Of a stretch of DNA of 64,000 nucleotides, positions 1 to 17,592 are shown piece by piece. Under the pieces are notes generated by a model that was not told the DNA's origin, made no database searches, and saw nothing but the letters and a program-made list of their open reading frames with translations. Each line of letters starts with the position of its first letter. Positions within the stretch are counted from its first letter, which is position 1. The position numbers were made by a program, and so were the translations under genes. The stretch comes from Xanthomonas sacchari (GTDB taxonomy: Bacteria; Pseudomonadota; Gammaproteobacteria; Xanthomonadales; Xanthomonadaceae), in NCBI RefSeq assembly GCF_024266585.1, contig NZ_CP100647.1:787001-851000 (forward strand), given 5' to 3'.

Positions 1-2217
<2,217 letters not shown>

Positions 2218-2231
2218 GCCGGCGTCCTGCG

Positions 2232-3335
2232 CTAGCGCCCCTTGGGCGGGCTGGCGACCGAACCGCGCGTCACCAGCCGGTGCGGGACCACGTGGTCGCT
2301 GGACACGCGCGCGTCGTCGCGCCTGTGGCGGATGCTGCGCAGCAGGATGTCGATGGCGGCATCGGCCATCGAGGCGATCGGTTGATGGATGGTGGTGAGC
2401 TCCGGCCAGACGGTCGTGGCGGCCGAGGTGTCGTCGAAGCCCACCACCGACAGGTCGCGGGGCACCTCCAGGCCGCGCCGGTGCGCGACCGAGATCGCCG
2501 CCGCGCCCATGTCGTCGTTGCTGGCGAAGATCGCGGTCGGCGGCCGCCGCTGCGACAGCAGCTTCTCGGCGGCGGCCAGGCCCGAGCGGTAGGTGTAGTC
2601 CCCTTGCTGGACCAGGCCGGGTTCGACCTTCAGCCCGGCCTCCTGCAGGGCGGTGGCGAAGCCTTCGTAGCGCCGCGCGCTGGCGCTGAGGTCCTGGCGG
2701 CCGCGGATGAAGCCGATGCGCCGGTGGCCGTGCCGGATCAGGTGGTCGGCCATCTCCTTGCCGGCGTGGAAGTCGTCGATGCGCACGCAGGAGATCGCGT
2801 CGCTGAGGCGGCCGGAGGCGATCGCGACCACCGGGATGCCGGCCTTGACCAGCTCGGTCACCGCCGCCTGCGATTCGCACAACGGCGGCGGCAGGATGAC
2901 GCCATCCACGCGTCCGCCCAGGGCGCGCGCGGCCTTGCGCTCGGCGTCGGCGTCCAGGTCCTCCCAATAGTGGATGACCAACTGGATGGCGGCGTTGGAG
3001 GCGACGCGCAGCAGGCCGACCAGCAGCTCGCGCAGGTAGGCACCGCTGGGATTGGTGTAGATCAGGGCGATGCGCGTGTGCTGCGCGGCGGCCAGCGAAC
3101 TGGCGGCCAGGTTGGGCGTGTAGCCCAGCTCGCGCACCGCGCGCATCACGCGCTCGCGGGTGGCATCGCGCACCTTGCCGTGGTTGATCGCGCGCGAGAC
3201 GGTCATCGGCGAGACCCCGGCCAGGGCCGCCACCTCGTCGATCGTCACCCCGCTGGTCTTGCGGCGCACCGCTTTCTTCGGCTTCTCCAAAACGCGTTCC
3301 CTTTGTTCTGCTTGACGCTGCCGCGCCGCGGGCAC
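2232..3335 (-). CDS. LacI-family transcriptional regulator
   Basis: The 367-residue protein has an N-terminal LacI helix-turn-helix (TIDEVAALAGVSPMTVSRAIN, around residues 31-51) followed by a periplasmic-binding-protein-like sugar sensor domain. The listed start is a GTG, with a basic leader of about 28 residues before the HTH, so the true start may be slightly downstream. It is transcribed away from the GH67 gene, with only 66 bases between the two starts, and converges on the GH3 gene. It probably represses the adjacent xylan-degradation genes in response to a sugar, as LacI regulators do in Xanthomonas xylan clusters. I did not find a convincing palindromic operator in the 66 bases. Confidence 0.93.
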   Translation of the reverse strand: MPAARQRQAEQRERVLEKPKKAVRRKTSGVTIDEVAALAGVSPMTVSRAINHGKVRDATRERVMRAVRELGYTPNLAASSLAAAQHTRIALIYTNPSGAYLRELLVGLLRVASNAAIQLVIHYWEDLDADAERKAARALGGRVDGVILPPPLCESQAAVTELVKAGIPVVAIASGRLSDAISCVRIDDFHAGKEMADHLIRHGHRRIGFIRGRQDLSASARRYEGFATALQEAGLKVEPGLVQQGDYTYRSGLAAAEKLLSQRRPPTAIFASNDDMGAAAISVAHRRGLEVPRDLSVVGFDDTSAATTVWPELTTIHQPIASMADAAIDILLRSIRHRRDDARVSSDHVVPHRLVTRGSVASPPKGR

Positions 3336-3401
3336 GCCGTCAGCTTACAAGGTTTGCTGGCGGTGCTTTTGCATCGTTCGGATGTCATTCGGTGTCACTG
3401 G

Positions 3402-5546
3402 ATGCTGGGCGCTGCGATGGCCTTGATGGCCTGCGCGGGCAGCACGTGCGCCGAGGATGGCGCCGCGCTGTGGATGCGCTACGTCCCCTCCCAAGGCGCC
3501 GTACGCGCGATGGACGGCCGCATGCGCCTGGACGAGGTGGTGGCGCCGGCGCGGACGCCGACGCAGCGTGTCGCGCGCGACGAACTGGTGCGTGGCCTGA
3601 GCGGCCTGCTGGGCCGCGCGCCGGCGACGCCGGCGGTGGCGAGCGGCGACCACGCGGTGGTGCTGGGCACGCCGCAGTCGTCGCCTTCGCTTGCGCCGTT
3701 CCGCGCGCAGATCGCGGCGCTGGGCGAGGAGGGTTACCTGCTCAAGCGCGTCCGCCTCGATGGGCGCGCGGTGTTGCTGGTGGCCGCACGCCGGGACATC
3801 GGCGTGCTGTACGGCGTGTTCCATCTGCTGCGACTGCTGCAGACCGGCGCGTCGCTGGACACGCTCGAGGTGCAGGAGTCGCCGCGGATCCGGCTGCGCG
3901 TGCTCGACCATTGGGACGACCTGGACGGCCATGTCGAGCGCGGCTATGCGGGCCGCTCGCTGTGGGACTGGCAGAGCCTGCCGGAGTGGCGCGACCCGCG
4001 CTACACCGACTACGCGCGCGCCAATGCCTCGCTGGGCATCAACGGTACCGTGCTGAACAACGTCAATGCCAACGCGCTGAGCCTGGCGCCGGATTATCTG
4101 GAAAAGGCGGCGGCGCTGGCCGACGTGTTCCGGCCCTACGGCATCCGCGTGTACCTGAGCGCACGCTTCAGCGCGCCCATCGAACTGGGTGGGTTGAAGA
4201 CCGCCGATCCGCGCGATCCGGCCGTGCAGCGCTGGTGGCGCGACAAGGCCGACGAGATCTATGCGCGCATTCCGGATTTCGGCGGCTTCCTGGTCAAGGC
4301 CAATTCGGAAGGCCAGCCCGGCCCGCAAGACTATGGCCGCTCGCATGCCGACGGCGCCAACCTGCTGGCCGATGCGCTGGCCCCGCACGGCGGCGTGGTG
4401 ATGTGGCGGGCGTTCGTCTATGCCCACGAGGTGCCGGCGGACCGCGCCACGCAGGCGTACACCGAGTTCGTCGGCCTCGACGGCGCGTTCCGCCCGAACG
4501 TGATCGTGCAGGTCAAGAACGGCCCCATCGACTTCCAGCCGCGCGAGCCCTTCCATCCGCTGTTCGGCGCGCTGCCGCGCACGCCGCTGATGCTGGAATT
4601 CCAGATCACCAAGGAATATCTCGGCTTCGCCACGCACCTGGTGTACCTGGGGCCGCTGTACGAGGAAGTCCTGCAGTCCGACACCCACGCCCGCGGCGCG
4701 GGCTCCACGGTGGCGGACGTGGTGGAGGGTTCATTGGAGGGCCATGCCCTGACCGGCATCGCCGGCGTCGCCAATATCGGCAACGACCGCACCTGGAGCG
4801 GTTCGCACTTCGACCAGGCCAACTGGTACGCCTTCGGCCGTCTGGCCTGGAATCCGCATCAATCCGCCCGTGGCATCGCGGCGGAATGGGCGGCGATGAC
4901 GTTCTCGCCGGCGCCGGAGGTGGTGCAGCCCATCGTCGCGATGATGATGGGCTCGCGCGAGGCCGCGGTGAACTACATGACCCCGCTGGGCCTGCACCAC
5001 CTGATGGCGCGCGGCCACCACTACGGCCCCGGCCCCTGGGTGGACGGCGGCCCGCGTGCGGACTGGACCTCGGTGTACTACCACCGTGCCGATCGCGATG
5101 GCATCGGCTTCGACCGCACCGCCCGCGGCAGCAATGCGGTGGGCCAGTACGCGCCCGCGGTGGCGGCCGTGTACGGCGACCTGGCGCGGGTGCCCGAGCC
5201 GTTGCTGTTGTGGTTCCACCACGTGCCGTGGGAGCACCGCATGGCCTCCGGGCGGCCGCTGTGGGACGAACTGGTCGGGCGCTATGCGCTGGGCGTGCGC
5301 CAGGTGCGGGCCATGCAGGCGACCTGGGACGGCCTGCGCGGCAAGGTGGATGCCGAGCGGCATGCGCAGGTGGCGGCCTTCCTGCGCATCCAGTTGCGCG
5401 AAGCGCAGTGGTGGCGCGATGCCAGCGTGGCGTACTTCCAGTCGGTGAGCGGGCGGCCGTTGCCTACAGGCGAAGCGCCGCCGCCGCATCCGCTGGCCTG
5501 GTATCAGGCGCTGCAGTTTCCTTCCGCACCCGGAGATGGACGATGA
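3402..5546 (+). CDS. agu67A: GH67 xylan alpha-1,2-glucuronidase
   Basis: The 714-residue protein removes (4-O-methyl)glucuronic acid from xylo-oligosaccharides. The chosen ATG gives a short signal peptide (MLGAAMALMACAGSTCA), pointing to the periplasm. GH67 catalytic blocks are visible: KANSEGQPGP, whose Glu is the acid in this family; KNGPIDFQ, whose Asp, together with the Glu of LMLEFQ, forms the base pair. The length matches bacterial GH67 enzymes. The reading frame continues far upstream through the LacI gene, but that is a high-GC artefact. The stop overlaps the ATG of the next gene by four bases (ATGA), so the two are probably translationally coupled. Confidence 0.95.
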   Translation: MLGAAMALMACAGSTCAEDGAALWMRYVPSQGAVRAMDGRMRLDEVVAPARTPTQRVARDELVRGLSGLLGRAPATPAVASGDHAVVLGTPQSSPSLAPFRAQIAALGEEGYLLKRVRLDGRAVLLVAARRDIGVLYGVFHLLRLLQTGASLDTLEVQESPRIRLRVLDHWDDLDGHVERGYAGRSLWDWQSLPEWRDPRYTDYARANASLGINGTVLNNVNANALSLAPDYLEKAAALADVFRPYGIRVYLSARFSAPIELGGLKTADPRDPAVQRWWRDKADEIYARIPDFGGFLVKANSEGQPGPQDYGRSHADGANLLADALAPHGGVVMWRAFVYAHEVPADRATQAYTEFVGLDGAFRPNVIVQVKNGPIDFQPREPFHPLFGALPRTPLMLEFQITKEYLGFATHLVYLGPLYEEVLQSDTHARGAGSTVADVVEGSLEGHALTGIAGVANIGNDRTWSGSHFDQANWYAFGRLAWNPHQSARGIAAEWAAMTFSPAPEVVQPIVAMMMGSREAAVNYMTPLGLHHLMARGHHYGPGPWVDGGPRADWTSVYYHRADRDGIGFDRTARGSNAVGQYAPAVAAVYGDLARVPEPLLLWFHHVPWEHRMASGRPLWDELVGRYALGVRQVRAMQATWDGLRGKVDAERHAQVAAFLRIQLREAQWWRDASVAYFQSVSGRPLPTGEAPPPHPLAWYQALQFPSAPGDGR

Positions 5547-7525
5547 AGCCGACAACGTGGAGAGGCCGGCTGCTGGCAGCGGCCCTGGGCTGCTGCGCCG
5601 CGCCCTGCATGGCGCAGCAAGCGGCGCCGCCGCTGTTGCATCCGCTGTTTCAGGACCACGCCGTGCTGCAGCGCGACCGGCCGATGCCGGTCTGGGGGAA
5701 CGCCGCGCCGGGTACCACGGTGTCGGTGACCTTCGCCCGGCAGTCGGTCAGCGTACGCGCCGATGCCGGCGGCCGCTGGCGTGCGACGCTCAAGCCGGTC
5801 GCCGCCGGTGGGCCTTACGACATGACAGTGCGCGCGGGACAGGATCGCCAGGTCGTGCGCGATGTGCTGATGGGCGATGTCTGGCTGTGTTCCGGGCAAT
5901 CGAACATGGAACTGCCGGTGTGGCGCGCGCTGGATGCGGGCCGCGAACTGGCCGCGGCCACCCAGCCGAGCATCCGCCTGTTCACCGTCCCCAAGGCCGC
6001 GGCGGTCACGCCGCAGGACGCGTTTCCGGCTGCCGTCGCGTGGCGACCTGCATCGCCCGAGACGGTACGGGAGTTTTCCGCCGCCTGCTTCTACTTCGCC
6101 CGCGAACTGCAGAAGACGGTCAAGGTGCCGATGGGGCTGATCCAGGCGGCCTGGGGCGGATCGCGGATCGAGGCCTGGACCAGCGCCGAGGCCCTGCGCG
6201 CGCAGGGCGGCATGGACGCCGCGCTCGACGTGCTGGCGCAGTCTGCCACCGATCCCGTCGCGGCGAGCGCGCGCTGGGGCCGGCACTGGCAGCAGTGGTG
6301 GAGCACGCGCGCCGGTGCCGAGCCGGGCGATACGCCGTGGCAGCCCGGCGCCGACGGCAAGGGGTGGCAGGACGCACCGGCCGCGCTCGGCGCATGGGAG
6401 CACTGGGGCGTGCCCGCGCTCGCCGACTACAACGGCATGGTCTGGTACCGCACGCAGGTCCGCCTGACCGCCGCACAGGCGGTGCAGGGCGCACGGCTGG
6501 TGCTGGGGCCGGTCGACGAGACGGACATGACCTGGGTGAACGGCGTGGCCGTGGGCAGCCAGAACGCGCCGAGCGATCCGCGCCGGTATGCGCTTCCACC
6601 CGGCCTGTTGAAGGCGGGGCTCAACACGGTGGTGGTCAACGTGCTGGATACCTACGGCGAGGGTGGACTGGCAGGCCCCGCGAGCGCCCAGGCCGTGCAG
6701 TTGGACGATGGCACGCGGATCGCCCTGGATTCGCCTTGGCAGTACCGGGTCGCGCCCGATCCACAGTCACCGCCGCTGGCGCCGTGGCACGCCGCCTCGG
6801 GCATGGCGACGCTGTACAACGGCATGATCGCGCCGCTCGGGGCGTACGGGCTGCGGGGAATGCTGTGGTACCAGGGCGAATCCAACACCGGCGACGGCGC
6901 CGCCTACGCGACGCGGCTGCGTGGCTTGCGCGACGACTGGCGCCGCCGCTTCGGCGCGGCGACGCCGCTGCTGGTGGTGCAGTTGGCCGGCTACGGTCGC
7001 CCGCCGCAGGCGCCGACGGAGAGCGGCTGGGCGCAGGTACGCGAGGCGCAGCGCCGCGTGGCCGCAGAAGACCCGCATAGCGGCCTCGCGGTGGCCATCG
7101 ACATCGGCGACGCCTACGACATCCATCCGCCGAACAAGCAGGAACTGGGGCGGCGCCTGGCCCAGGCGGCGCGCCATGTGGTCTACGGCGAACGCGCACT
7201 GGCCCCGTCCGGCCCGACCCCACGCACGGCATCGCGCGCGCAGCATGCGGTGCGGATCGCGTTCGACGACGTCGTCGGGACGCTGGCCACGACCGGTGCG
7301 AACGGCCCCATCGGCTTCGAACTCTGCGACGCGCAGGCGCAGCAGTGTCGTTATGCCGATGCCGCGCTGGACGGGCGCGACGTGCTCCTGCACAGCCCGC
7401 AGGCCGCAACCGCCGCCCGCGTCCGCTACTGCTGGGCCGACGGCCCGGTCTGCACGTTGCGCGACGGTTCCGGCGCGCCGGCGGGGCCGTTCGAACTCTC
7501 CCTCCCCGCTGCAGAGGTGCCCTGA
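5543..7525 (+). CDS. Sialate O-acetylesterase-like (SASA) carbohydrate acetylesterase
   Basis: The 660-residue secreted esterase has an N-terminal signal peptide (cleavage near CMAQQA). The SASA/DUF303 hydrolase blocks are present: GQSNME with the nucleophile Ser120, WGG after it, YQGESNTGDG, and a C-terminal DIGDAYDIHPP block carrying the Asp-x-x-His pair. A jelly-roll insert (LGPVDETDMTWVNG, around residues 315-345) interrupts the domain, as usual for this family. Its place between GH67 and GH43 suggests that it removes acetyl groups from acetylated xylan fragments rather than from sialic acid. Acetylesterases of this kind occur in other Xanthomonas xylan clusters. Starts overlap the preceding gene by 4 and the following one by 1 base. 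Confidence 0.9.
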   Translation: MKPTTWRGRLLAAALGCCAAPCMAQQAAPPLLHPLFQDHAVLQRDRPMPVWGNAAPGTTVSVTFARQSVSVRADAGGRWRATLKPVAAGGPYDMTVRAGQDRQVVRDVLMGDVWLCSGQSNMELPVWRALDAGRELAAATQPSIRLFTVPKAAAVTPQDAFPAAVAWRPASPETVREFSAACFYFARELQKTVKVPMGLIQAAWGGSRIEAWTSAEALRAQGGMDAALDVLAQSATDPVAASARWGRHWQQWWSTRAGAEPGDTPWQPGADGKGWQDAPAALGAWEHWGVPALADYNGMVWYRTQVRLTAAQAVQGARLVLGPVDETDMTWVNGVAVGSQNAPSDPRRYALPPGLLKAGLNTVVVNVLDTYGEGGLAGPASAQAVQLDDGTRIALDSPWQYRVAPDPQSPPLAPWHAASGMATLYNGMIAPLGAYGLRGMLWYQGESNTGDGAAYATRLRGLRDDWRRRFGAATPLLVVQLAGYGRPPQAPTESGWAQVREAQRRVAAEDPHSGLAVAIDIGDAYDIHPPNKQELGRRLAQAARHVVYGERALAPSGPTPRTASRAQHAVRIAFDDVVGTLATTGANGPIGFELCDAQAQQCRYADAALDGRDVLLHSPQAATAARVRYCWADGPVCTLRDGSGAPAGPFELSLPAAEVP

Positions 7526-9219
7526 TGCGTTCGCTGCTCGCCACTGCCCTCCTGTTGCTGTCCGCCGCGCTGCAGCCGCTGCGGGCCGCGCCGGCACCGC
7601 CGGTCTACTTCGACTGGTTCGAATACGCCGGGCGCGATGCGGCCTTCGAGGCGCCGTTGCCGGCCGGGCACTACCGCAACCCGATCCTGGCCGGCTTCCA
7701 CGCGGACCCGAGCATCGTCGGCGCGAACGGGCGGTTCTATCTGGTCAATTCCAGCTTCACCTATTTCCCGGGCATCCCGGTGTTCGAGAGCGTCGATCTG
7801 GTGCACTGGACGCAGATCGGCAACGTGATCGACCGCCCGACGCAACTGGACTTCGATGGCCTGAGCGTGTCGCGCGGCATCTTCGCGCCGGCCATCGCCT
7901 ACCACGACGGGATGTTCTACGTGGTCACCACCGCCGTGGACAGCGGCGGCAACTTCATCGCCACCGCGCGCGATCCCGCCGGCCCCTGGTCGGACCCGCA
8001 CTGGCTGCCAGGCATCGGTGGCATCGATCCGTCGCTGTTCTTCGATGAAGACGGCCGCGTCTACCTGCTCAACAACGATGAGCCGTCCGGCCCGGCGCGC
8101 TACCCAGGCCACCGCGCGATCTGGATGCAGCAGCTCGACCCGGCGACCTTCACCCCGGTGGGACCGCGCAAGGTGCTGATCGACGGCGGTGTGGAGCCGG
8201 CGAAGAATCCGATCTGGATCGAGGGGCCGCATCTGTATCGCCGCGATGGCTGGTACTACCTCTCCGATGCCGAAGGCGGGACCGGGCCGCAGCATTCGCA
8301 GGTGGTGCTGCGCAGCCGCGACGTGTGGGGGCCTTACCTGCCGTACGCGGGCAATCCGATCCTCACCCAGCGCGACCTGCCCGACGACCGGCCGCTGCCG
8401 ATCGCCAATGCCGGTCACGCAGACATGGTCGAAGGGCCGGACGGTTCCTGGTGGGCGGTATTCCTGGCCAGCCGCACCTACGACGTGCGCCACTACAACA
8501 CCGGGCGCGAGACCTACCTGCTGCCGGTGCAGTGGCGCGACGGCTGGCCGGTGATCCTGCCGGCCGGGCAGGCCATCCCGTATGCGGTCAAGGCGCCGTC
8601 GTGGATGCGGGGCGAGGCGTCGCAGGCCCCGTCCACCGGCAACTTCGTCGAGCGCGACGAGTTCGACGCGTCGACGCTCGGCCGCGGCTGGTTGCGCGTG
8701 CGCGTGCCCAAGCAGGACTGGGCGGACCTGCGCGCGCGGCCGGGGTACTTGGCCGTGCATCCGCTGCCGGAGAACCTGGACACCCTGCGCAACCCCGCGT
8801 TCCTGGGGCGCCGCCAGCAGCACCTGCGGTTCGAGGCCAGCACCGCACTGACGCGCCCGGCGGCGGGCGTGGCGGCAGGGCTTGCGGCGTTCCAGAACGA
8901 GACCTGGTGGTACTTCCTTGGCGTGCGCCGTGTGGGCCGCGATCGCGTGGTGGTCTTCCTCGAAGCGAGGGAGGGCAAGGGCGCGACCAAGACGCTGGCC
9001 AGCCGCGAACTGGACGTGTCCAGCGCGCTGCGCCTGAAGATATCGGGTGACGAAGGGACGTATGCCTTCGCGTTCGACACCGGCGCGGGGCAGGGCTGGC
9101 AGACCCTCGCCGACGACGTCGACGGGACCGTGTTGAGTACGGATCGGGCAGGCGGCTTCGTGGGCGCCCTGCTGGGTCCTTTCGCGCGCGACGAGCGTGC
9201 CTCGAGGAGCAAACAATGA
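7525..9219 (+). CDS. GH43 beta-xylosidase / alpha-arabinofuranosidase, secreted
   Basis: The 564-residue protein begins with a clear signal peptide (MRSLLATALLLLSAALQPLRAA). The five-bladed GH43 domain carries the three expected acids: Asp61 in HADPS (base), Asp168 in GGIDPSLF (pKa modulator) and Glu233 in WIEGPH (acid). A C-terminal concanavalin-like beta-sandwich starts near residue 375 (VERDEFD), typical of two-domain beta-xylosidases. It should cleave xylose or arabinose from short xylan fragments in the periplasm. The ATG overlaps the stop of the acetylesterase gene by one base, and its own stop overlaps the next start by four bases. Confidence 0.94.
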   Translation: MRSLLATALLLLSAALQPLRAAPAPPVYFDWFEYAGRDAAFEAPLPAGHYRNPILAGFHADPSIVGANGRFYLVNSSFTYFPGIPVFESVDLVHWTQIGNVIDRPTQLDFDGLSVSRGIFAPAIAYHDGMFYVVTTAVDSGGNFIATARDPAGPWSDPHWLPGIGGIDPSLFFDEDGRVYLLNNDEPSGPARYPGHRAIWMQQLDPATFTPVGPRKVLIDGGVEPAKNPIWIEGPHLYRRDGWYYLSDAEGGTGPQHSQVVLRSRDVWGPYLPYAGNPILTQRDLPDDRPLPIANAGHADMVEGPDGSWWAVFLASRTYDVRHYNTGRETYLLPVQWRDGWPVILPAGQAIPYAVKAPSWMRGEASQAPSTGNFVERDEFDASTLGRGWLRVRVPKQDWADLRARPGYLAVHPLPENLDTLRNPAFLGRRQQHLRFEASTALTRPAAGVAAGLAAFQNETWWYFLGVRRVGRDRVVVFLEAREGKGATKTLASRELDVSSALRLKISGDEGTYAFAFDTGAGQGWQTLADDVDGTVLSTDRAGGFVGALLGPFARDERASRSKQ

Positions 9220-11915
9220 TGACGCGCAGATCTTCCTTTCGCAGCGGCGTTCGCGGCCGCCTGTTCCGCACGCTGGCGCTGTGCGTCGCCACCACGCTGG
9301 CCGGCGTCGGCCATGCCGCGGATACCAAGCCGTGGCAAGACACCTCGGCCAGCTTCGAGGACCGGGCGGCGGCGCTGGTCGCGCAGATGACGCTGGAGGA
9401 AAAAGCGGCGCAGATGCAGAACGCCGCGCCGGCGATCGAACGCCTGGGCGTGCCGGCCTACGACTGGTGGAACGAGGCGCTGCACGGCGTGGCGCGGGCC
9501 GGGCAGGCCACGGTGTTTCCGCAGGCCATCGGGTTGGCCGCCACCTTCGACGTGCCGTTGATGGGGCAGGTGGCCACCACCATCAGCGACGAGGCGCGCG
9601 CCAAGCACCACCAGTTCCTCCGCGAGGGCGCGCATGGCCGCTACCAGGGGCTGACCTTCTGGTCGCCGAACATCAACATCTTCCGCGACCCGCGCTGGGG
9701 GCGCGGCCAGGAAACCTACGGCGAGGATCCCTACCTCACCGCGCGCATGGGCGTGGCCTTCGTGCAGGGATTGCAGGGCGACGATCCGGTGTACCGCAAG
9801 CTCGACGCTACCGCCAAACACTTCGCCGTGCACAGCGGCCCGGAAGCCGACCGCCACCACTTCGATGCGCGCCCGAGCAAGCGCGACCTCTACGACACCT
9901 ACCTGCCGGCGTTCGAGGCGCTGGTGAAGGAGGGCAAGGTGGATGCGGTGATGGGCGCCTACAACCGGGTGTACGGCGAGTCCGCCAGCGCCAGCCGGTT
10001 CCTGTTGCGCGATGTGCTGCGCCGCGACTGGGGCTTCAAGGGGTATGTGGTGTCGGACTGCTGGGCCATCGTCGACATCTGGAAGCACCACCACCTGGTG
10101 CCCAGCCGCGAGGCCGCCGCCGCGCTGGCGGTCAGGAACGGCACCGAACTGGAGTGCGGCCAGGAGTACGCCACGCTGCCGGCGGCAGTGCGCCAGGGCC
10201 TGATCGGCGAAGCGGAGATCGACGACGCGGTGACGCGCCTGTTCGCCGCGCGGATGCGGCTGGGCATGTTCGATCCGCCGGAACGCGTACGCTGGGCGCG
10301 GATCCCCGCCTCGGTGAACCAGGCGCCCGCGCACGATGCGCTGGCCCTGCAGGCGGCGCAGGAATCGCTGGTGCTGCTGAAGAACGATGGCGTGCTGCCG
10401 CTGTCGCGCGACCTCAAGCGCATCGCCGTGGTCGGCCCGACCGCCGGCGACACCATGGCCCTGCTCGGCAACTACTTCGGCACCCCGGCGGCGCCGGTGA
10501 CCATCCTGCAGGGCATCCGCGACGCGGCCAAGGGCATCGAGGTGCGCTATGCGCGCGGCGTGGATCTGGTCGAAGGGCGCGAGGATCCCGGCGCCACGCC
10601 GCTGATCGAGGCGGCGTATCTGCGGCCTTCGGCCGACTCCCCGGAACGCGGCCTGCGCGGCGAGTACTTCCGCACGCCGGATCTGTCGGGGACGCCGGCG
10701 CTGGTGCGCACCGACGCGCAGGTCGGCTTCCGCTGGGACCGCGGCTCGCCGACCGACAACCTGCTGGCCCGTGGCGAAGCGGGGCCGGGGCAGGGCATTC
10801 CCAACGATCACTTCAGCATCCGCTGGAGCGGCCAGCTGCTGCCGCCGGTCTCGGGTCGCTACCGGATCGAGGCGGCCGCCGATGATGGCTTCCGCCTCTA
10901 TGTCGACGGCAAGCTGGTGCTGGATCACTGGACCGACAGCGACCGCATGCGCGCCGACGGCGTGGACCTGGACCTGCAGGCCGGCCGCGCCTATGCGGTG
11001 ACGCTGGAGTACTACGACGCCGAGCGCGACGCCGGCGTGCGCCTGGGCTGGCGCATGCCCGGCGCGAAGCCGCCGTTTGAGGAGGCGCTGGATGCCGCGC
11101 GCAACGCGGAGGTGGTGGTGTTCGTCGGCGGACTGACCGGCGATGTCGAGGGCGAAGAGATGAAGGTCGACTACCCGGGCTTCGCCGGCGGCGACCGCAC
11201 CGACCTGCGCCTGCCCGCGCCGCAGCGTGCCTTGCTGGAAGCGCTGCACGCCACCGGCAAGCCGGTGGTGATGGTGCTGACCGGCGGCTCGGCGCTGGCG
11301 GTGGACTGGGCCCAGGCGCATCTGTCGGCGATCCTGATGAGCTGGTATCCGGGGCAGCGCGGCGGCACCGCGGTGGGCCAGGCGCTGTTCGGCGAGGTCA
11401 ACCCCGCCGGCCGCCTGCCGGTGACGTTCTACCGGGCGGACCAGGCGCTGCCCGCGTTCGACGACTACGCGATGGAAGGCCGCACCTACCGCTACTTCCG
11501 CGGCACGCCGCTGTACCCGTTCGGCCACGGGCTGTCGTATACCCGCTTCGACTACGGCAAGCTGCGCCTGGATGCGCCGCGCATCGCCGACGACGGACGC
11601 CTCAAGCTGCAGGTGGAGGTGGCCAACACCGGCAAGCGCGCCGGCGACGAAGTCGCGCAGCTGTACGTGCGGCGGCTGGCGGCCGCGCCCGGCGATGCGC
11701 AGCAGGCGCTGCGTGGGTTCCAGCGCGTTCGCCTGGCCCCTGGCGAGCGGCGGACCCTGAGCTTCGAGCTGGATGCGCAACAGGCGCTGCGTCAGTACGA
11801 CGACGCGCGCGACACCTATGTCGTGCCGGCGGGGGACTACGAAGTGCGCATCGGCGGCTCCAGCGCCGATGCCCGCGTGCGCGCCCGCTTCACCGTGGAG
11901 GCGGCCCGTGAGTGA
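9216..11915 (+). CDS. xyl3A: GH3 beta-xylosidase with inserted PA14 domain
   Basis: The 899-residue protein has a signal sequence ending near GHAAD. The GH3 TIM barrel comes first, with the nucleophile Asp281 in GYVVSDCW. The GH3 C domain is interrupted at about residues 478-620 by a PA14 domain (GLRGEYFRTPDL, DDGFRLYVDGKLVLDHW), which in related enzymes shapes the substrate pocket. A fibronectin-III-like domain closes the protein. The N-terminal DWWNEALHGVAR motif is typical of xylosidase-type GH3 members. It should hydrolyse xylo-oligosaccharides to xylose. It overlaps the next gene by eight bases. Confidence 0.93.
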   Translation: MMTRRSSFRSGVRGRLFRTLALCVATTLAGVGHAADTKPWQDTSASFEDRAAALVAQMTLEEKAAQMQNAAPAIERLGVPAYDWWNEALHGVARAGQATVFPQAIGLAATFDVPLMGQVATTISDEARAKHHQFLREGAHGRYQGLTFWSPNINIFRDPRWGRGQETYGEDPYLTARMGVAFVQGLQGDDPVYRKLDATAKHFAVHSGPEADRHHFDARPSKRDLYDTYLPAFEALVKEGKVDAVMGAYNRVYGESASASRFLLRDVLRRDWGFKGYVVSDCWAIVDIWKHHHLVPSREAAAALAVRNGTELECGQEYATLPAAVRQGLIGEAEIDDAVTRLFAARMRLGMFDPPERVRWARIPASVNQAPAHDALALQAAQESLVLLKNDGVLPLSRDLKRIAVVGPTAGDTMALLGNYFGTPAAPVTILQGIRDAAKGIEVRYARGVDLVEGREDPGATPLIEAAYLRPSADSPERGLRGEYFRTPDLSGTPALVRTDAQVGFRWDRGSPTDNLLARGEAGPGQGIPNDHFSIRWSGQLLPPVSGRYRIEAAADDGFRLYVDGKLVLDHWTDSDRMRADGVDLDLQAGRAYAVTLEYYDAERDAGVRLGWRMPGAKPPFEEALDAARNAEVVVFVGGLTGDVEGEEMKVDYPGFAGGDRTDLRLPAPQRALLEALHATGKPVVMVLTGGSALAVDWAQAHLSAILMSWYPGQRGGTAVGQALFGEVNPAGRLPVTFYRADQALPAFDDYAMEGRTYRYFRGTPLYPFGHGLSYTRFDYGKLRLDAPRIADDGRLKLQVEVANTGKRAGDEVAQLYVRRLAAAPGDAQQALRGFQRVRLAPGERRTLSFELDAQQALRQYDDARDTYVVPAGDYEVRIGGSSADARVRARFTVEAARE

Positions 11916-14406
11916 TTCCCCGCGCATGGAGGTCGCCGCGCACACGTTGTCGGTGCGGGAGAAGCTGGGCTACAGCCTGGGCGACCTGGCGGCGAACCTG
12001 ATCTTCCAGACGCTGATCACCTACCTGGCCTTCTTCTACACCGATGTGTACCGATTGCCGCCGGCCACGGCGGCGACGATCATCTTCGCGATCGGCCTGC
12101 TGGGCGCGTTCGTGTTCACCCCGCTGATCGGCATTGCCGCCGACCGCACGGCGACCCGCTGGGGCAAGTTCCGGCCCTGGATCCTGTGGACGGCGATCCC
12201 GTTCGGCGTGCTGTCGCTGCTGGCCTTCAGCACCCCGGACCTGGGCGCGCGCGGCAAGGTCGTCTATGCCGTGACCACCTATGGCCTGCTGATGCTGGTG
12301 TACGCGGCCAACAACCTGCCGTACTCCGCGCTCAGCGGCGTGCTCACCGGCAACATGGATCAGCGCAACAGCCTGTCGGCCTACCGCTTCGTGGCGGTGA
12401 TGATCGCGCAGTTCATCATCCAGGTGCTGCTGTTGCCGCTGGTGCTGATCCTGGGCGACGGCGACAACGTGCGCGGCTTCGAGCGCTTGATGACGGTGTT
12501 CGCTGTGGTAGGCACGCTGTTCTTCCTGATCACCTTCGCCACCACCCGCGAGCGCATCGTCCCGGCCAAGGAACAGTCTGCCGGCGTGCTGCAGGACCTG
12601 TCCGACTTGCTGCACAACCGGCCGTGGAAGGTGATGCTGGCGTTGACGGTGCTGGTCTTCGTCAACCTGGCGCTGAAGGGGGGCACCTACATCTACTATT
12701 TCCAGTATTACCTGAGCGAGGCCGCGCTGGCCGGCTTTCTCGATGCCTCCGGCTTCAACGGGTTCATCGGCGGAGTGAACGCGCTGCTCAGCGGATGGGG
12801 CCTGTCCGGCTTCACCTGGCCGCAGGACCCGGCGACCTCGGCATTCAGCCTGTTCAACGCCTGCGGCATCCTGTGCATGATCCTGGGCATCGGGGGCTCC
12901 CGGCGCCTGGCCGACCGCTTCGGCAAGCGCGATGCCTTCGGCGGCGCGCTGCTGCTGTCCACCGTGTTCCTGCTGGTGTTCTACGTCCTGCCGCCCACCG
13001 CGATCGGCGTGGCCTTCGGTGCCTTCATGCTGCACGGGTTCTGCTATGGCATCACCATCCCGCTGCTGTGGGCGATGATCGCCGACGTCGCCGACTATTC
13101 CGAGTGGACGAACCATCGCCGCGCCACCGCGATCATCTTCTCGGCGATGTTGTGCGGGCTGAAGATCGGGCTCAGCATCGGCGGCGCGCTGGTCGCCGGC
13201 ATCCTCGCGCACCACGGCTACCAGGCGGGCGCGGACCAGCAGCCGCAGGCCGTGGTGGACGGCATCCGCCTGACCGTCAGCGTCTACAGCGCCATCCCGT
13301 TCCTGCTCGCGGTGGCGTTGCTGTTCTTCTACCGGATCGACAAGCGCATGGAGCTGCGCATCGAACACGACCTGCAGGCGCGTCGCCAGGGAAGCGACCC
13401 GAGCGAGTTCAGCGACCTCGGCCACCTCGCGGCGCACGCCATCGCGCAACCGCTGGTCACGCACATCTACACGGCCGATCCGTCGGCGCACGTGTTCGAG
13501 GGACGCCTGTACATCTATCCCTCGCACGACATCGACAGCGGCGCACCGTTCGACGACGACGGCGGCCACTTCGGCATGGAGGACTACCACGTGCTGCGCA
13601 TGGACACGCCCGACGGCGCGGCCACCGATTGCGGCGTCGCCCTGCATGTGCGCGACGTGCCGTGGGCCAGCCGGCAGATGTGGGCGCCGGACGCGGCCAC
13701 CCGCGGCGGCCGCTATTACCTGTATTTCCCGGCCAAGGACGCGCAGGGCCTGTTCCGCATCGGCGTGGCGGTGGCCGATCGCCCGGAAGGCCCGTTCGCC
13801 GCCGAGCCAGAGCCGATCGCCGGCACCTACTCGATCGACCCGGCCGTCTTCGAGGACGACGACGGCGCGCACTACCTCTGCTTCGGCGGCATCTGGGGCG
13901 GCCAGTTGCAGAAGTACCGCGACGACCGCTTTGATGCGGCGCACGTCGAGCCCGAGGGCGATGCGCCGGCGCTGGGGCCGCGGATCGCCCGGCTGGACCC
14001 GGGCATGACCCGGCTGGCGGAGCGCACGCGGGAAATCGTGATCCTCGACGAGCACGGGCAACCGTTGCGCGCCGACGACCATGCGCGTCGCTTCTTCGAG
14101 GGACCGTGGCTGCACAAGGACCAGGGCCGCTACTACCTGTCGTACTCCACCGGCGATACGCACCTGCTGTGTTACGCCACGGGCGACAGCCCATATGGCC
14201 CGTTCACCTATCGCGGCGTGCTGCTGAAGCCGGTAGTGGGCTGGACCACGCACCACTCCATCTGCGCGTTCCAGGGGCGCTGGTACCTGTTCTACCACGA
14301 CGCCCTGCTGTCCGGCGGCGTCACCCACCTGCGCTCGGTCAAGTGCACGCCGCTGCACGTCCAGCCGGATGGGAGCATTGGTACTGTCGATCCCTATGGC
14401 GGCTGA
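11908..14406 (+). CDS. GPH-type MFS sugar symporter fused to a GH43 glycosidase domain
   Basis: One uninterrupted frame of 832 codons. Residues about 12-480 form a 12-helix glycoside-pentoside-hexuronide:cation symporter (REKLGYSLGDLAANL, GIAADRTATRWGKFRPW, YSEWTNHRRAT). A charged linker of about 35 residues follows, then a complete GH43 domain at about 515-832, with Asp524 (YTADPS), Asp644 (SIDPAVF) and Glu731 (FEGPWL) as the catalytic acids. The start is a GTG preceded by GGAG seven bases upstream; ATG 11926 is the alternative. There is no cleavable signal, so the GH43 part should face the cytoplasm if the symporter has the usual N-in/C-in topology. It probably imports xylo- or arabinoxylo-oligosaccharides and cleaves them on entry. 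Confidence 0.9.
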   Translation: MSDSPRMEVAAHTLSVREKLGYSLGDLAANLIFQTLITYLAFFYTDVYRLPPATAATIIFAIGLLGAFVFTPLIGIAADRTATRWGKFRPWILWTAIPFGVLSLLAFSTPDLGARGKVVYAVTTYGLLMLVYAANNLPYSALSGVLTGNMDQRNSLSAYRFVAVMIAQFIIQVLLLPLVLILGDGDNVRGFERLMTVFAVVGTLFFLITFATTRERIVPAKEQSAGVLQDLSDLLHNRPWKVMLALTVLVFVNLALKGGTYIYYFQYYLSEAALAGFLDASGFNGFIGGVNALLSGWGLSGFTWPQDPATSAFSLFNACGILCMILGIGGSRRLADRFGKRDAFGGALLLSTVFLLVFYVLPPTAIGVAFGAFMLHGFCYGITIPLLWAMIADVADYSEWTNHRRATAIIFSAMLCGLKIGLSIGGALVAGILAHHGYQAGADQQPQAVVDGIRLTVSVYSAIPFLLAVALLFFYRIDKRMELRIEHDLQARRQGSDPSEFSDLGHLAAHAIAQPLVTHIYTADPSAHVFEGRLYIYPSHDIDSGAPFDDDGGHFGMEDYHVLRMDTPDGAATDCGVALHVRDVPWASRQMWAPDAATRGGRYYLYFPAKDAQGLFRIGVAVADRPEGPFAAEPEPIAGTYSIDPAVFEDDDGAHYLCFGGIWGGQLQKYRDDRFDAAHVEPEGDAPALGPRIARLDPGMTRLAERTREIVILDEHGQPLRADDHARRFFEGPWLHKDQGRYYLSYSTGDTHLLCYATGDSPYGPFTYRGVLLKPVVGWTTHHSICAFQGRWYLFYHDALLSGGVTHLRSVKCTPLHVQPDGSIGTVDPYGG

Positions 14407-14484
14407 GAGGTCGTCGCAGTGACCGCCTGTTGGAGTCAGCCGTCATGCAGCCGGGAAGCGCGAAGCGATGCGCTTTCCGATGGC

Positions 14485-15072
14485 GCAGTGCGTCGGGACT
14501 GAAGTCCCTCCCACAGTACCCCCGGCGGGCGCGTCGTAAGCCCCTGTGGGAGCGACTTCAGTCGCGACGAGTGAAACCATCCAACGACCGATGGCGACAG
14601 CAGTCGGGACCGAAGTCCCTCCCACAGTGCACCTGGCGGTCTCGCCGCAAGCCCCTGTGGGAGTGACTTCAGTGGCGACGAGTGAAACCATCCAATGACC
14701 GATGGCAACAGCGGTCGGGACCGAAGTCTTTCCCACAGTGCCCCGTTGGGCGCGCCGTAAGCCCCTGTGGGAGCGACTTCAGTCGCGACGAGTGAAACCA
14801 TCTAACGACCGATTGCGACAGCAGTCGGCACTGAAGTCCCTCGCACAGTGCACCTGGCGGGCGCGCCGTAAGCCCCTGTGGGAGCGACTTCAGTCGCGAC
14901 GAGTGAAACCATCCAACGACCGATTGCTGCAGCGGTCGGGACTGAAGTCCCTCCCACAGTGCACCTGGCGGTCTCGCCGTAAACCCCTGTGGGAGCGACT
15001 TCAGTCGCGACGAGTGAAGCCATCCAATGACCGATTGCTGCAGCGGTCGGGACTGAGTCCCTCCCACAATTG
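14485..15072 (+). repeat. Tandem array of ~111 bp paired inverted-repeat (REP/BIME-like) units
   Basis: The motif CCCCTGTGGGAGCGACTTCA recurs at 14541, 14652 (one change), 14762, 14873 and 14984, a period of 110-111 bases. Each copy is followed by GTCGCGACGAGTGAAACCAT and then by an inverted half, GTCGGGACTGAAGTCCCTCC, which also occurs once more before the first full unit. Each half can fold by itself (GCGACT/AGTCGC and GGGACT/AGTCCC), and CTGTGGGAG can pair with CTCCCACAG. The array lies between two converging transcription units and may act in transcript termination or stabilisation. The halves resemble the REP at 38183. The whole 691-base gap after 14406 holds no convincing gene. Confidence 0.9.
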
Positions 15073-15097: not shown

Positions 15098-16201
15098 TTA
15101 ATCCGACCGCGGCAACAGCTCCAAGCCCTGGATCTCGCGAATCCCCAACCCAGGCGCTTCGCCAATCCGGATCTGCGCCTCGTCGAACTGCACCCCGCCG
15201 ACCACCGGATCGAACGCCCCCAGCGACGGCCCGTCCAGGTCCACCTTGGTGATGACGTCCGCGCGGGCCACCGCCAGGTGCGCCGCCGCCGCCACGCCGA
15301 TGCTCGATTCGAGCATGCAGCCGATCATGCACGGCACCCCGTACACCGCGGCGATGTCGGCGATGCGCAGCGCGTTGGACAGGCCGCCGGCCTTGATCAG
15401 CTTGATGTTGACGATGTCCGCCGCGCGCCGCTGCAGCAGCGCGATCGCCTGCGCCGGCGAGAACACGCTCTCGTCGGCCATCACCGGGGTCTGCACGCGC
15501 TCGGTCACGTACTGCAGGCCGTCCACGTCGCCGGCCTTGACCGGCTGCTCCAGCAGTTCCAGCGTCACCCCGGCGCGCTCCAGCGCATGCATCGCCTGCA
15601 CCGCCTGCTTCGGCGTCCAGCCCTGGTTGGCGTCCAGGCGCAGCTGCGCGCGGCCGTCGACCGCGGCGTGGATCGCTTTGACCCGTGCGATGTCCTCGGC
15701 CAGATCGGTGCCGATCTTGATCTTCAGTGCCACGAAGCCGCGCGCCAGCGCCGACAGCGCGTCGGCCACCATCGTGTCCACGGCATTCACGCTGATGGTG
15801 AGGTCGGTGCTCAGGTGCGGCGTGCCGCCGCCGAGCAGGCGGTACAGCGGTGCGCCATGCTGCTGCGCCCACAGGTCGTGCACGGCGATCTCCATCGCCG
15901 CCTTGGCGCTGCTGTTGTGCTCCAGCGCGCCCTGGATCAGACCGCGCAGGCGCTGCAGGTCGGCGATGTCCTCGCCGATCAGGCGTGGCGCCAGGCAGCG
16001 TTCGATCGCCGCGATGATCGACCCGTGGGTGTCGCCGGTGATCGGCGGGGTGGCCGGGGCGCTGCCATGGCCGATCCGGCCATCGTCGGTGTGGACCAGG
16101 ACCACCACGTCCTCGATCGCCTGCACGGTGCGCAGTGCGGTCTTGAACGGGGTCTTCAGCGGCACGCGCAGCATGCCCAGGCGGATCTCGGTGATCTTCA
16201 T
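15098..16201 (-). CDS. ycjG: L-Ala-D/L-Glu (dipeptide) epimerase, enolase superfamily
   Basis: This 367-residue muconate-lactonizing-like enzyme epimerises L-Ala-D-Glu released from murein peptides to L-Ala-L-Glu so that the amino acids can be reused. Catalytic lysines are K162 (in ALKIKIG) and K267 (in NIKLIKAGG). Metal ligands are D190 (LDANQGW), E218 (LLEQP) and D243 (MADES), as in E. coli YcjG and Bacillus YkfB. It has no signal peptide, so it acts in the cytosol. Its ATG overlaps the stop of the upstream NlpC/P60 gene by four bases, a coupled pair comparable with ykfB/ykfC. Confidence 0.93.
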   Translation of the reverse strand: MKITEIRLGMLRVPLKTPFKTALRTVQAIEDVVVLVHTDDGRIGHGSAPATPPITGDTHGSIIAAIERCLAPRLIGEDIADLQRLRGLIQGALEHNSSAKAAMEIAVHDLWAQQHGAPLYRLLGGGTPHLSTDLTISVNAVDTMVADALSALARGFVALKIKIGTDLAEDIARVKAIHAAVDGRAQLRLDANQGWTPKQAVQAMHALERAGVTLELLEQPVKAGDVDGLQYVTERVQTPVMADESVFSPAQAIALLQRRAADIVNIKLIKAGGLSNALRIADIAAVYGVPCMIGCMLESSIGVAAAAHLAVARADVITKVDLDGPSLGAFDPVVGGVQFDEAQIRIGEAPGLGIREIQGLELLPRSD

Positions 16202-17592
16202 TCGGTGGTCGGTGCGCGCAGGCGCTGGATGCGGGTGATGCGGTCGATGAACGGCGTGCCGTCGCCGAGCAGCAGCGGTTCCAGCGGGGTCACCGAGACG
16301 CCGTTGAGGCGCACGCGCTGCAGCTGGCCGCTGGCGTCGCGGTAACTGGCGCCGGCCACGTCGTGGATCACCCAGGTCTGGCCGTCTTCGTGGCCGATCA
16401 CCAGCATCACGTGGCCGGGGATGTAGACCAGGTCGCCGACGCGCAGCCGCGCCAGCGCCTGCCGGCGCTGCGGCAGCGGGTCGGTGGCGGTGTAGGGCAC
16501 CGAGGCCAGCGCCGGACTGCGCGCCTGGTCGCCGGTGTTGCGCGGCAGGTCGATGCCGAGGCTGCGATGGAGGTCGAGCACGAAGCCGCTGCAGTCGCGT
16601 GCGTCGTAACTGTTGCCCCAGCCGTAGCGCTCGCCGAGGAACTTGAACGCCTGCCGCAGCAGGGACTGCGGCGTGGCCGGCAGCGGCGCCTCAGCGACGT
16701 CGGCGCTGCGTGGCACCAGCGCGGGCACCAACTGCAGCCGCCCGTCGCGGTCGCGCAGCGGCAACTGCACCACGTAGGCGGCCAGCGGCGACTGGCCGTT
16801 GACCGCCCGCAGCGGCGGCCAGTCGCGCAGCAGCGGCAGGGCGCTGCCCATGTCCAGCGCCACCTGCGAGGCCGCCGGCAGCTCCGGGGTGAACACGGTG
16901 GATGCGCGCGCGCCGGTGACCAGCAGCCGCGGCGTGCGCTGCGCGTACGCCAGCACGCTGGCGCGGTCGGCCTCGGCGATGCGGTCGCGGGCGATCCAGG
17001 CGGCGTAGTTGTTCGCCAGCACGAACAGCCACTGCCCATCGGCGCTGGCGTGCAGGATCGCCACCGCGCTGCCTGGATACAGCGCCGATTCCTGGAAGCG
17101 GTCGATGTCGCGATCGTCGCGGTCGCTGAACACGCGCTCGGCGGTCGGGAAGCGCCGCAGGTCGGCGCGTTGCACCACCAGCGCATAGCGCGGCTGCACC
17201 TGCGCCGGCAGCGCGTCCAGCGCCAGCGCGCGTTGCAGCGCCTGCAATCGCGCGGGGTCGAGAACGGTGCCCTGCGCATCGTAGAGCGTGCGCGTCGGCG
17301 GCGCCGACAGCGCCAGGATATGCGTGCGGACCTGCGCGCCGGGCAGCTGCGCCGGCAGTGCGGCGAGGTCGTGCATCGACGGATCCTCGCGCAACAGCCG
17401 GGCGTTGAACGCGTCGCGCTGCGCCGCCTGCAGCAGCGGTGGCGACGTGGCCGGTAGCCGTGCGATCCAGTGCGCGGCCTGCAACTGCGCCGGCTGTGCC
17501 TGCAGCGGCAGCGCATCGGCGGCACGTGCCGTCGCGATGGCCCCGCTCGCCGCCGCGGCGAGCAACAGGCACAGGCCGCGCATCGTGATCAT
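16198..17592 (-). CDS. NlpC/P60 murein peptide endopeptidase with SH3-like domains
   Basis: The 464-residue exported protein has an N-terminal signal peptide (MRGLCLLLAAAASGAIATARA; ATG at 17592 or 17583). The middle carries SH3_6/SH3_7-like segments (ALYPGSAVAILHASADGQWL). The C-terminal NlpC/P60 domain has the nucleophile Cys in YDARDCSGFV (about residue 333) and the His in PGHVMLVIGHEDG. The architecture matches YkfC-like gamma-D-Glu-L-diamino acid endopeptidases, which release L-Ala-D-Glu, the substrate of the co-transcribed epimerase. Confidence 0.92.
   Translation of the reverse strand: MITMRGLCLLLAAAASGAIATARAADALPLQAQPAQLQAAHWIARLPATSPPLLQAAQRDAFNARLLREDPSMHDLAALPAQLPGAQVRTHILALSAPPTRTLYDAQGTVLDPARLQALQRALALDALPAQVQPRYALVVQRADLRRFPTAERVFSDRDDRDIDRFQESALYPGSAVAILHASADGQWLFVLANNYAAWIARDRIAEADRASVLAYAQRTPRLLVTGARASTVFTPELPAASQVALDMGSALPLLRDWPPLRAVNGQSPLAAYVVQLPLRDRDGRLQLVPALVPRSADVAEAPLPATPQSLLRQAFKFLGERYGWGNSYDARDCSGFVLDLHRSLGIDLPRNTGDQARSPALASVPYTATDPLPQRRQALARLRVGDLVYIPGHVMLVIGHEDGQTWVIHDVAGASYRDASGQLQRVRLNGVSVTPLEPLLLGDGTPFIDRITRIQRLRAPTTE

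What the first reader, a model, noticed from the sequence alone, without database searches (positions are those of the whole stretch)
11908..14406. Sugar symporter and GH43 glycosidase fused in one polypeptide
A complete GPH symporter runs without interruption into a complete GH43 domain with all three catalytic acids (Asp524, Asp644, Glu731). If the symporter has its usual topology, the hydrolase faces the cytoplasm and could cleave xylo-oligosaccharides as they enter. This would complement the exported GH43 two genes upstream.
Basis: partly seen in the sequence, partly recalled or inferred. Interest (0 to 1): 0.75.

Follow-up and report, generated by a model that had tools for sequence, protein, structure and literature searches.

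The report
Sugar importer fused to xylan-sugar-cutting enzyme
In one branch of plant- and soil-associated bacteria, a membrane protein thought to import xylan sugars and the enzyme thought to cut them, normally two neighbouring genes, have become a single protein, a natural setting in which to test whether uptake and digestion can be physically joined.

Summary
In detail: window 11908-14406 is one uninterrupted 832-residue frame, a 12-helix GPH-family (MFS) transporter running into a complete GH43 subfamily-1-type exo-xylosidase with the triad D524/D644/E731. It is not a base-calling accident: the junction is intact in 28 genomes (7 in the window's genus including the window, 21 Stenotrophomonas). 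In the 80 named relatives read, 72 have two adjacent genes, 7 are fused and 1 is cut off. A tree of both parts gives one origin of the xanthomonad fusion. The junction is a net 76-nt loss (181 to 105 nt) that removed the transporter stop and the GH43 start. The operon most simply then moved into the window's clade. The GH43 part has no visible start signal of its own yet stays under purifying selection, so the fused chain is most likely what is made. The hydrolase is predicted cytoplasmic. Whether tethering gives channelling is untested. Compaction of the operon offers a neutral explanation. 'Symporter' is unproven: the MelB Asp pair is missing. New variant of a known gene pair.

The parts
11897..11901 (+). 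GGAGG, Shine-Dalgarno-like, 6 nt before GTG 11908
   Evidence: read; GTGGAGG before the overlapping GTG in 12 of the 13 fused relatives printed
11908..14406 (+). fused gene, 832 aa: GPH-family transporter + GH43_1-type xylosidase
11908..13389 (+). GPH/MFS transporter part, residues 1-494, 12 membrane helices
13390..13440 (+). linker and junction, residues 495-511, low confidence in the model; longer by 18 nt than in most fused relatives
13441..14403 (+). GH43 five-bladed propeller, residues 512-832; D524, D644, E731, H782
9216..11915 (+). GH3 xylosidase-like gene (Xyl3A-like), overlaps fused gene by 8 nt
7525..9219 (+). GH43 + GH43_C2 gene with signal-like N-terminus, overlaps GH3 gene by 4 nt
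   Evidence: signal peptide by eye
5543..7525 (+). SASA-type carbohydrate esterase gene
3399..5546 (+). GH67 alpha-glucuronidase gene
2232..3335 (-). regulator, LacI-type by look of the sequence only; syntenic with the operon in relatives
40..2217 (+). further gene, GH3-type by look of the sequence only; also next to the regulator in L214, L215

Best explanation
This gene makes one membrane-anchored polypeptide: an inner-membrane GPH-family importer for xylo-oligosaccharides whose cytoplasmic C-terminus, through a short flexible linker, carries a Ca-dependent exo-xylosidase that releases xylose. It works in the last step of an operon in which GH67, esterase, GH43 and GH3 enzymes trim xylan fragments before import. 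It arose once among the xanthomonads sampled, in a Stenotrophomonas lineage, by a net 76-nt deletion between the adjacent transporter and GH43 genes, and reached the window's Xanthomonas clade with the whole operon. Shown here: fusion, its distribution and single origin, conservation, predicted fold. Inferred: substrate, cytoplasmic side, import-then-cleave order, place of the other enzymes, horizontal transfer.
For: Single frame with both complete domains. 28 genomes with the intact frame (7 of 20 in the window's genus; 21 of 91 Stenotrophomonas, plus G729, whose match is cut in two by a contig end). Junction 105 nt in 30 of the 33 fused xanthomonad loci measured and 123 nt in the other 3 and in the window, against 181 nt in the 11 nearest split Stenotrophomonas loci (some of these loci are the same genome fetched twice). 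One fused clade, support 99/95, in a 50-row transporter+GH43 tree, with the seven rows of the window's genus inside the Stenotrophomonas ones. No start codon between ATG 481 and the GH43 domain in the window, and no GGAG/GAGG/AGGA before that ATG. pN/pS 0.163 transporter, 0.157 GH43, 0.60 linker. Model pLDDT 90.1, 12 membrane helices. Nearest solved enzyme is a xylose-releasing exo-oligoxylanase. Separate homologues start with MSDE- or MPED-like residues without a visible signal peptide.
Against: No biochemical datum on any fused member. Substrate rests on the GH43 part and the operon. Helix-II Asp pair of MelB absent, so cation coupling is open. pTM 0.64 and a low-confidence linker: no fixed arrangement of the two domains is predicted. 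The quick GH43-only tree needs 4 state changes where the transporter tree needs 2, although its supported branches force only 2. Cleavage after translation is not excluded.
Confidence: 0.8

Rival explanations
1. The fusion is a neutral by-product of operon compaction. Deletions closed the gaps in this operon; the last one happened to join two frames, and both domains simply keep their old, independent jobs. (It concerns why the fusion exists and can be true together with the best explanation.)
For: Measured from the upstream stop to the first aligned residue of the next gene, GH3-to-transporter is -14 to 25 nt in 11 fused loci (10 genomes) against 58-66 nt in 8 split loci; GH43-to-GH3 is -4 in 8 of 11 fused loci. 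In the window all four other junctions overlap. Selection on both domains is close to that in split relatives (0.163/0.157 against 0.142/0.172). Single origin.
Against: GH43-to-GH3 is also closed in 2 of the 8 split loci (L184, L067) and slightly open in 3 fused ones (2, 8 and 20 nt), so compaction and fusion are not strictly tied. The fused state persists in 28 genomes and is found in two genera; a second, unrelated fusion exists in one Chitinophagales MAG. Neither proves an advantage.
Confidence: 0.5
2. The fusion is an adaptation: holding the hydrolase at the inner mouth of the importer pulls import forward and limits loss or build-up of oligosaccharides.
For: Consecutive pathway steps in one chain; short linker of nearly constant length although its sequence drifts; domains predicted intact with the hydrolase on the cytoplasmic side.
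Against: Rare: 18 of 147 xanthomonad genomes with a match are read through as one frame; in the Bacteroidota searches no listed match besides the seed MAG is read through (45 of 294 and 28 of 395 genomes match, seed included). No predicted fixed docking.
Confidence: 0.25
3. A separate GH43 protein is also made, from an internal start or by proteolysis at the linker.
For: The linker is predicted with low confidence, as a flexible stretch would be.
Against: No ATG/GTG/TTG in the 40 codons before ADPSAHVF in the window; across the fused relatives the candidates lack the Shine-Dalgarno-like pieces scanned for, except two with AGGA (L091, L163). ATG 481 of the window has none either.
Confidence: 0.1
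4. Frame artefact of assembly or sequencing.
For: None found.
Against: Same junction in 28 genomes.
Confidence: 0.01

Closest known systems
Adjacent gph-GH43_1 gene pair of Xanthomonas and others (enzyme of X. citri: XacGH43_1, Xac4258, PDB 6xn0)
   Same: same two proteins in the same order in the named Xanthomonas loci, about 70-76% identity; the X. citri enzyme is characterised as a Ca-activated xylose-releasing exo-oligoxylanase (PMC7809346, passages seen)
   Different: two proteins with a stop and a new start between them; here one chain. The X. citri locus itself was not looked at
E. coli K-12 yagG-yagH
   Same: GPH-family transporter gene 11 nt before a putative xylosidase/arabinosidase gene; YagG 34% identical
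   Different: YagH is only distantly alike (26% over part); YagG has both helix-II Asp; not fused. B. subtilis xynP-xynB is a similar pair (recalled, not tested)
LacS of Streptococcus thermophilus
   Same: GPH carrier with a hydrophilic C-terminal domain on the cytoplasmic surface (PMC10703360, passages seen)
   Different: its domain is a regulatory PTS IIA, not a glycosidase
XylT + Xyl43 of a marine Vibrio (strain EA2)
   Same: MFS importer and GH43 enzyme in one locus for xylo-oligosaccharides, hydrolysis inside the cell (PMC12125979, passages seen)
   Different: separate proteins, beta-1,3-xylan, major uptake there by an ABC system

Membership tests
GPH transporter family | profile match over curated cut-off | tested here: met
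   TIGR00792 329 against 231.35; PF13347 267.9 against 27
GPH transporter family | 12-helix MFS fold | tested here: met
MelB-type cation-coupled GPH symporters | Asp55/Asp59 cation pair in helix II | tested here: not met
   Position 71 (Asp59 place) is T or N in 144 of 146 rows and D in 2; positions 66 and 67 (Asp55 place, depending on the gap) are G, A or S in 146 of 146; alignments to MelB and YagG. The Asp numbering of MelB and its role are recalled.
GPH transporter family | sugar uptake activity | not testable with these tools
   no assay
GH43, subfamily 1 type | catalytic base, pKa modulator and acid; Ca-site His | tested here: met
   D524, D644, E731, H782 in 28 of 28 fused rows
GH43, subfamily 1 type | five-bladed propeller close to a characterised GH43_1 | tested here: met
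GH43, subfamily 1 type | xylose release from xylo-oligosaccharides | not testable with these tools
   inferred from 6xn0
LacS-like GPH carriers | C-terminal PTS IIA domain | tested here: not met
   Pfam finds only MFS and GH43 families in the protein at E <= 0.001

The most novel reading that the evidence does not exclude
A natural import-and-cleave machine: a secondary sugar transporter with its own glycosidase on the cytoplasmic face, so that the substrate is hydrolysed as it leaves the carrier and hydrolysis helps to drive net uptake, possibly replacing part of the cation coupling whose usual Asp pair this subfamily lacks.
Probability: 0.2. Interest if true: 0.75.

Novelty: new variant of a known kind. 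Interest (0 to 1): 0.47.

Why it matters
A fusion of a secondary sugar transporter to a glycoside hydrolase did not appear in the listings of my ten full-text searches (of these 7, 11, 22, 23 and 72 aimed at it), which cover only open-licence PMC papers. Because fused and separate versions exist in close relatives, the effect of tethering an enzyme to its importer can be tested with natural matched pairs. It also shows how a longer chain can arise by one small deletion in a compacted operon and turn up in a second genus.

Tried and rejected
Rejected: sequencing artefact (28 genomes). Rejected as unlikely: internal start. Rejected: that the fusion is general for the family; apparent near-full-length matches in Xanthomonas and Bacteroidota turned out on reading to hold a stop and a new start. 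Plasmids: 25 records match, 1 over at least 80% of the query, and there two separate features are annotated. No listed PDB chain spans both parts, which is no evidence of absence. The plain Foldseek PDB search could not be run.

Weak points: the quick trees of each domain have many weak forks, and the GH43-only tree alone does not show one fused clade. The Bacteroidota searches were centred on the fused MAG, so it must not be counted as a find there. In one search I did not read each of the 129 genomes that are not read through. Gaps run to the first aligned residue, not to a proven start codon. The name of the window's species is not established. Its genus holds Xanthomonas sp. GPE 39 and X. 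bonasiae (same coordinates), and I suspect the X. translucens group (recall only).

Full report

How common it is. Six fused ones are Stenotrophomonas and one is a Chitinophagales MAG (L055). In the window's genus (20 genomes), 7 are fused, 11 have the two parts in separate frames (in G015 on two contigs) and 2 (G005, G019) keep only short pieces of the GH43 part. In Stenotrophomonas (91 genomes), 37 have a match at E <= 1e-120: 21 fused, 1 (G729) cut in two by a contig end and consistent with a fusion, 15 separate. In a family sample of 395 genomes, 147 match and 18 are read through as one frame; the rest show a stop inside the match, or separate or partial matches, and were not all read one by one. 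In the MAG's own family, 45 of 294 match, and in its phylum 28 of 395; in the listed matches only the MAG itself is read through. In the class sample, 4 of 369 match and only the window is read through.

How it arose. From the conserved ExxIE motif after the last membrane helix to ADPSA, 30 of 33 fused xanthomonad loci measure 105 nt and 3 (L087, L090, L091) measure 123 nt, as does the window: an 18-nt insert. The 11 nearest separate-gene Stenotrophomonas loci measure 181 nt. The net loss of 76 nt brings the shifted GH43 frame into register and removes the last transporter codons, the stop, the GH43 start and its first codons. A careful 50-row tree of both parts (28 fused, 22 separate) gives one fused clade (99/95; 98% of 200 bootstrap trees), with the seven rows of the window's genus inside the Stenotrophomonas ones. 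The quick transporter tree agrees; the quick GH43 tree is poorly resolved and needs two changes more. In the loci compared, the regulator, GH67, GH43, GH3, transporter and GH43_1 genes are shared in order by the window, Stenotrophomonas and Pseudoxanthomonas, with the esterase missing in S. rhizophila (L006, L181). In the members of the window's genus without the fusion that were looked at (L179, L180, L059, L060), the pair has none of the GH67, GH3 or first GH43 genes beside it in the fetched stretches; L059 shows a distant regulator match (35%). In six such genomes (L208-L213) the enolase-NlpC flank (window 15098-17592) is present without the cassette; the only cassette-like match there is a 31-32% GH3 some 2-8 kb away. 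Horizontal arrival of the whole cassette is the simplest reading.

Is the fused chain made? The window has no ATG, GTG or TTG in the 40 codons before ADPSAHVF; the nearest, ATG 481 just after the last membrane helix, has no GGAG, GAGG or AGGA at the right distance. Other fused genomes have a few candidates, and only two are preceded by AGGA. Yet the GH43 part is as constrained (pN/pS 0.157) as the transporter (0.163) and close to the separate homologues (0.172 and 0.142, 11 rows), while the linker is relaxed (0.60, over only 12 codons). An enzyme that has no visible start of its own but stays conserved is most simply made as part of the fusion.

How it most likely works. The operon carries GH67, an esterase, a GH43 and a GH3, the last three with signal-like N-termini by eye. 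These would trim xylan fragments outside the inner membrane. The fused protein would import short xylo-oligosaccharides and release xylose inside. Transport substrate, direction and coupling are inferred. The cation pair of MelB (Asp55/Asp59, recalled) is replaced: position 71 is T or N in 144 of 146 rows (D in 2) and positions 66-67 are G, A or S in all 146, whereas YagG has both Asp. 'Symporter' is therefore an open claim for the whole subfamily, fused or not.

Adaptive or neutral. In the fused lineage neighbouring gaps are mostly closed too: from the GH3 stop to the first aligned transporter residue, -14 to 25 nt in 11 fused loci against 58-66 nt in 8 separate ones; GH43-to-GH3, -4 to 20 nt against 50-107 nt in 6 of 8 separate ones and near zero in the other 2. 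In the window all four other operon junctions overlap, by 4, 1, 4 and 8 nt. This favours fusion as the end point of compaction. Nothing here shows an advantage of tethering, and nothing excludes it.

Novelty. The pair of genes and both protein families are known. One polypeptide of a GPH transporter and a GH43 enzyme did not appear in the listings of ten paper searches, which hold only open-licence PMC texts. I file it as a new variant of a known kind.

Noticed in passing
window 14477-15068: 5.4 copies of a 111-bp tandem repeat right after the fused gene, with palindrome-like pieces (GGGACTGAAGTCCC, GCGACTTCAGTCGC), resembling REP-type repeats (the resemblance is recalled).
   Followed up: partly
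transporter residues 66-71, window 12103-12120: The helix-II Asp pair that binds the cation in MelB is missing in nearly all of the subfamily, fused and separate.
   Followed up: partly
L055 8025-10439: Transporter-GH43 fusion with a different linker in a Chitinophagales MAG, away from the xanthomonad fused clade in the tree.
   Followed up: partly
L190 9178-9441; G005 C1 2268889-2269068: Two genomes of the window's genus keep only short pieces alike to the end of the GH43 domain.
   Followed up: no
window 13390-13440: An 18-nt (6-residue) insert in the linker is shared by the window, L087, L090 and L091 among the fused loci measured.
   Followed up: partly
window 3399-11915: All four junctions between GH67, esterase, GH43, GH3 and the fused gene overlap (4, 1, 4 and 8 nt), tighter than in most split relatives compared.
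   Followed up: partly
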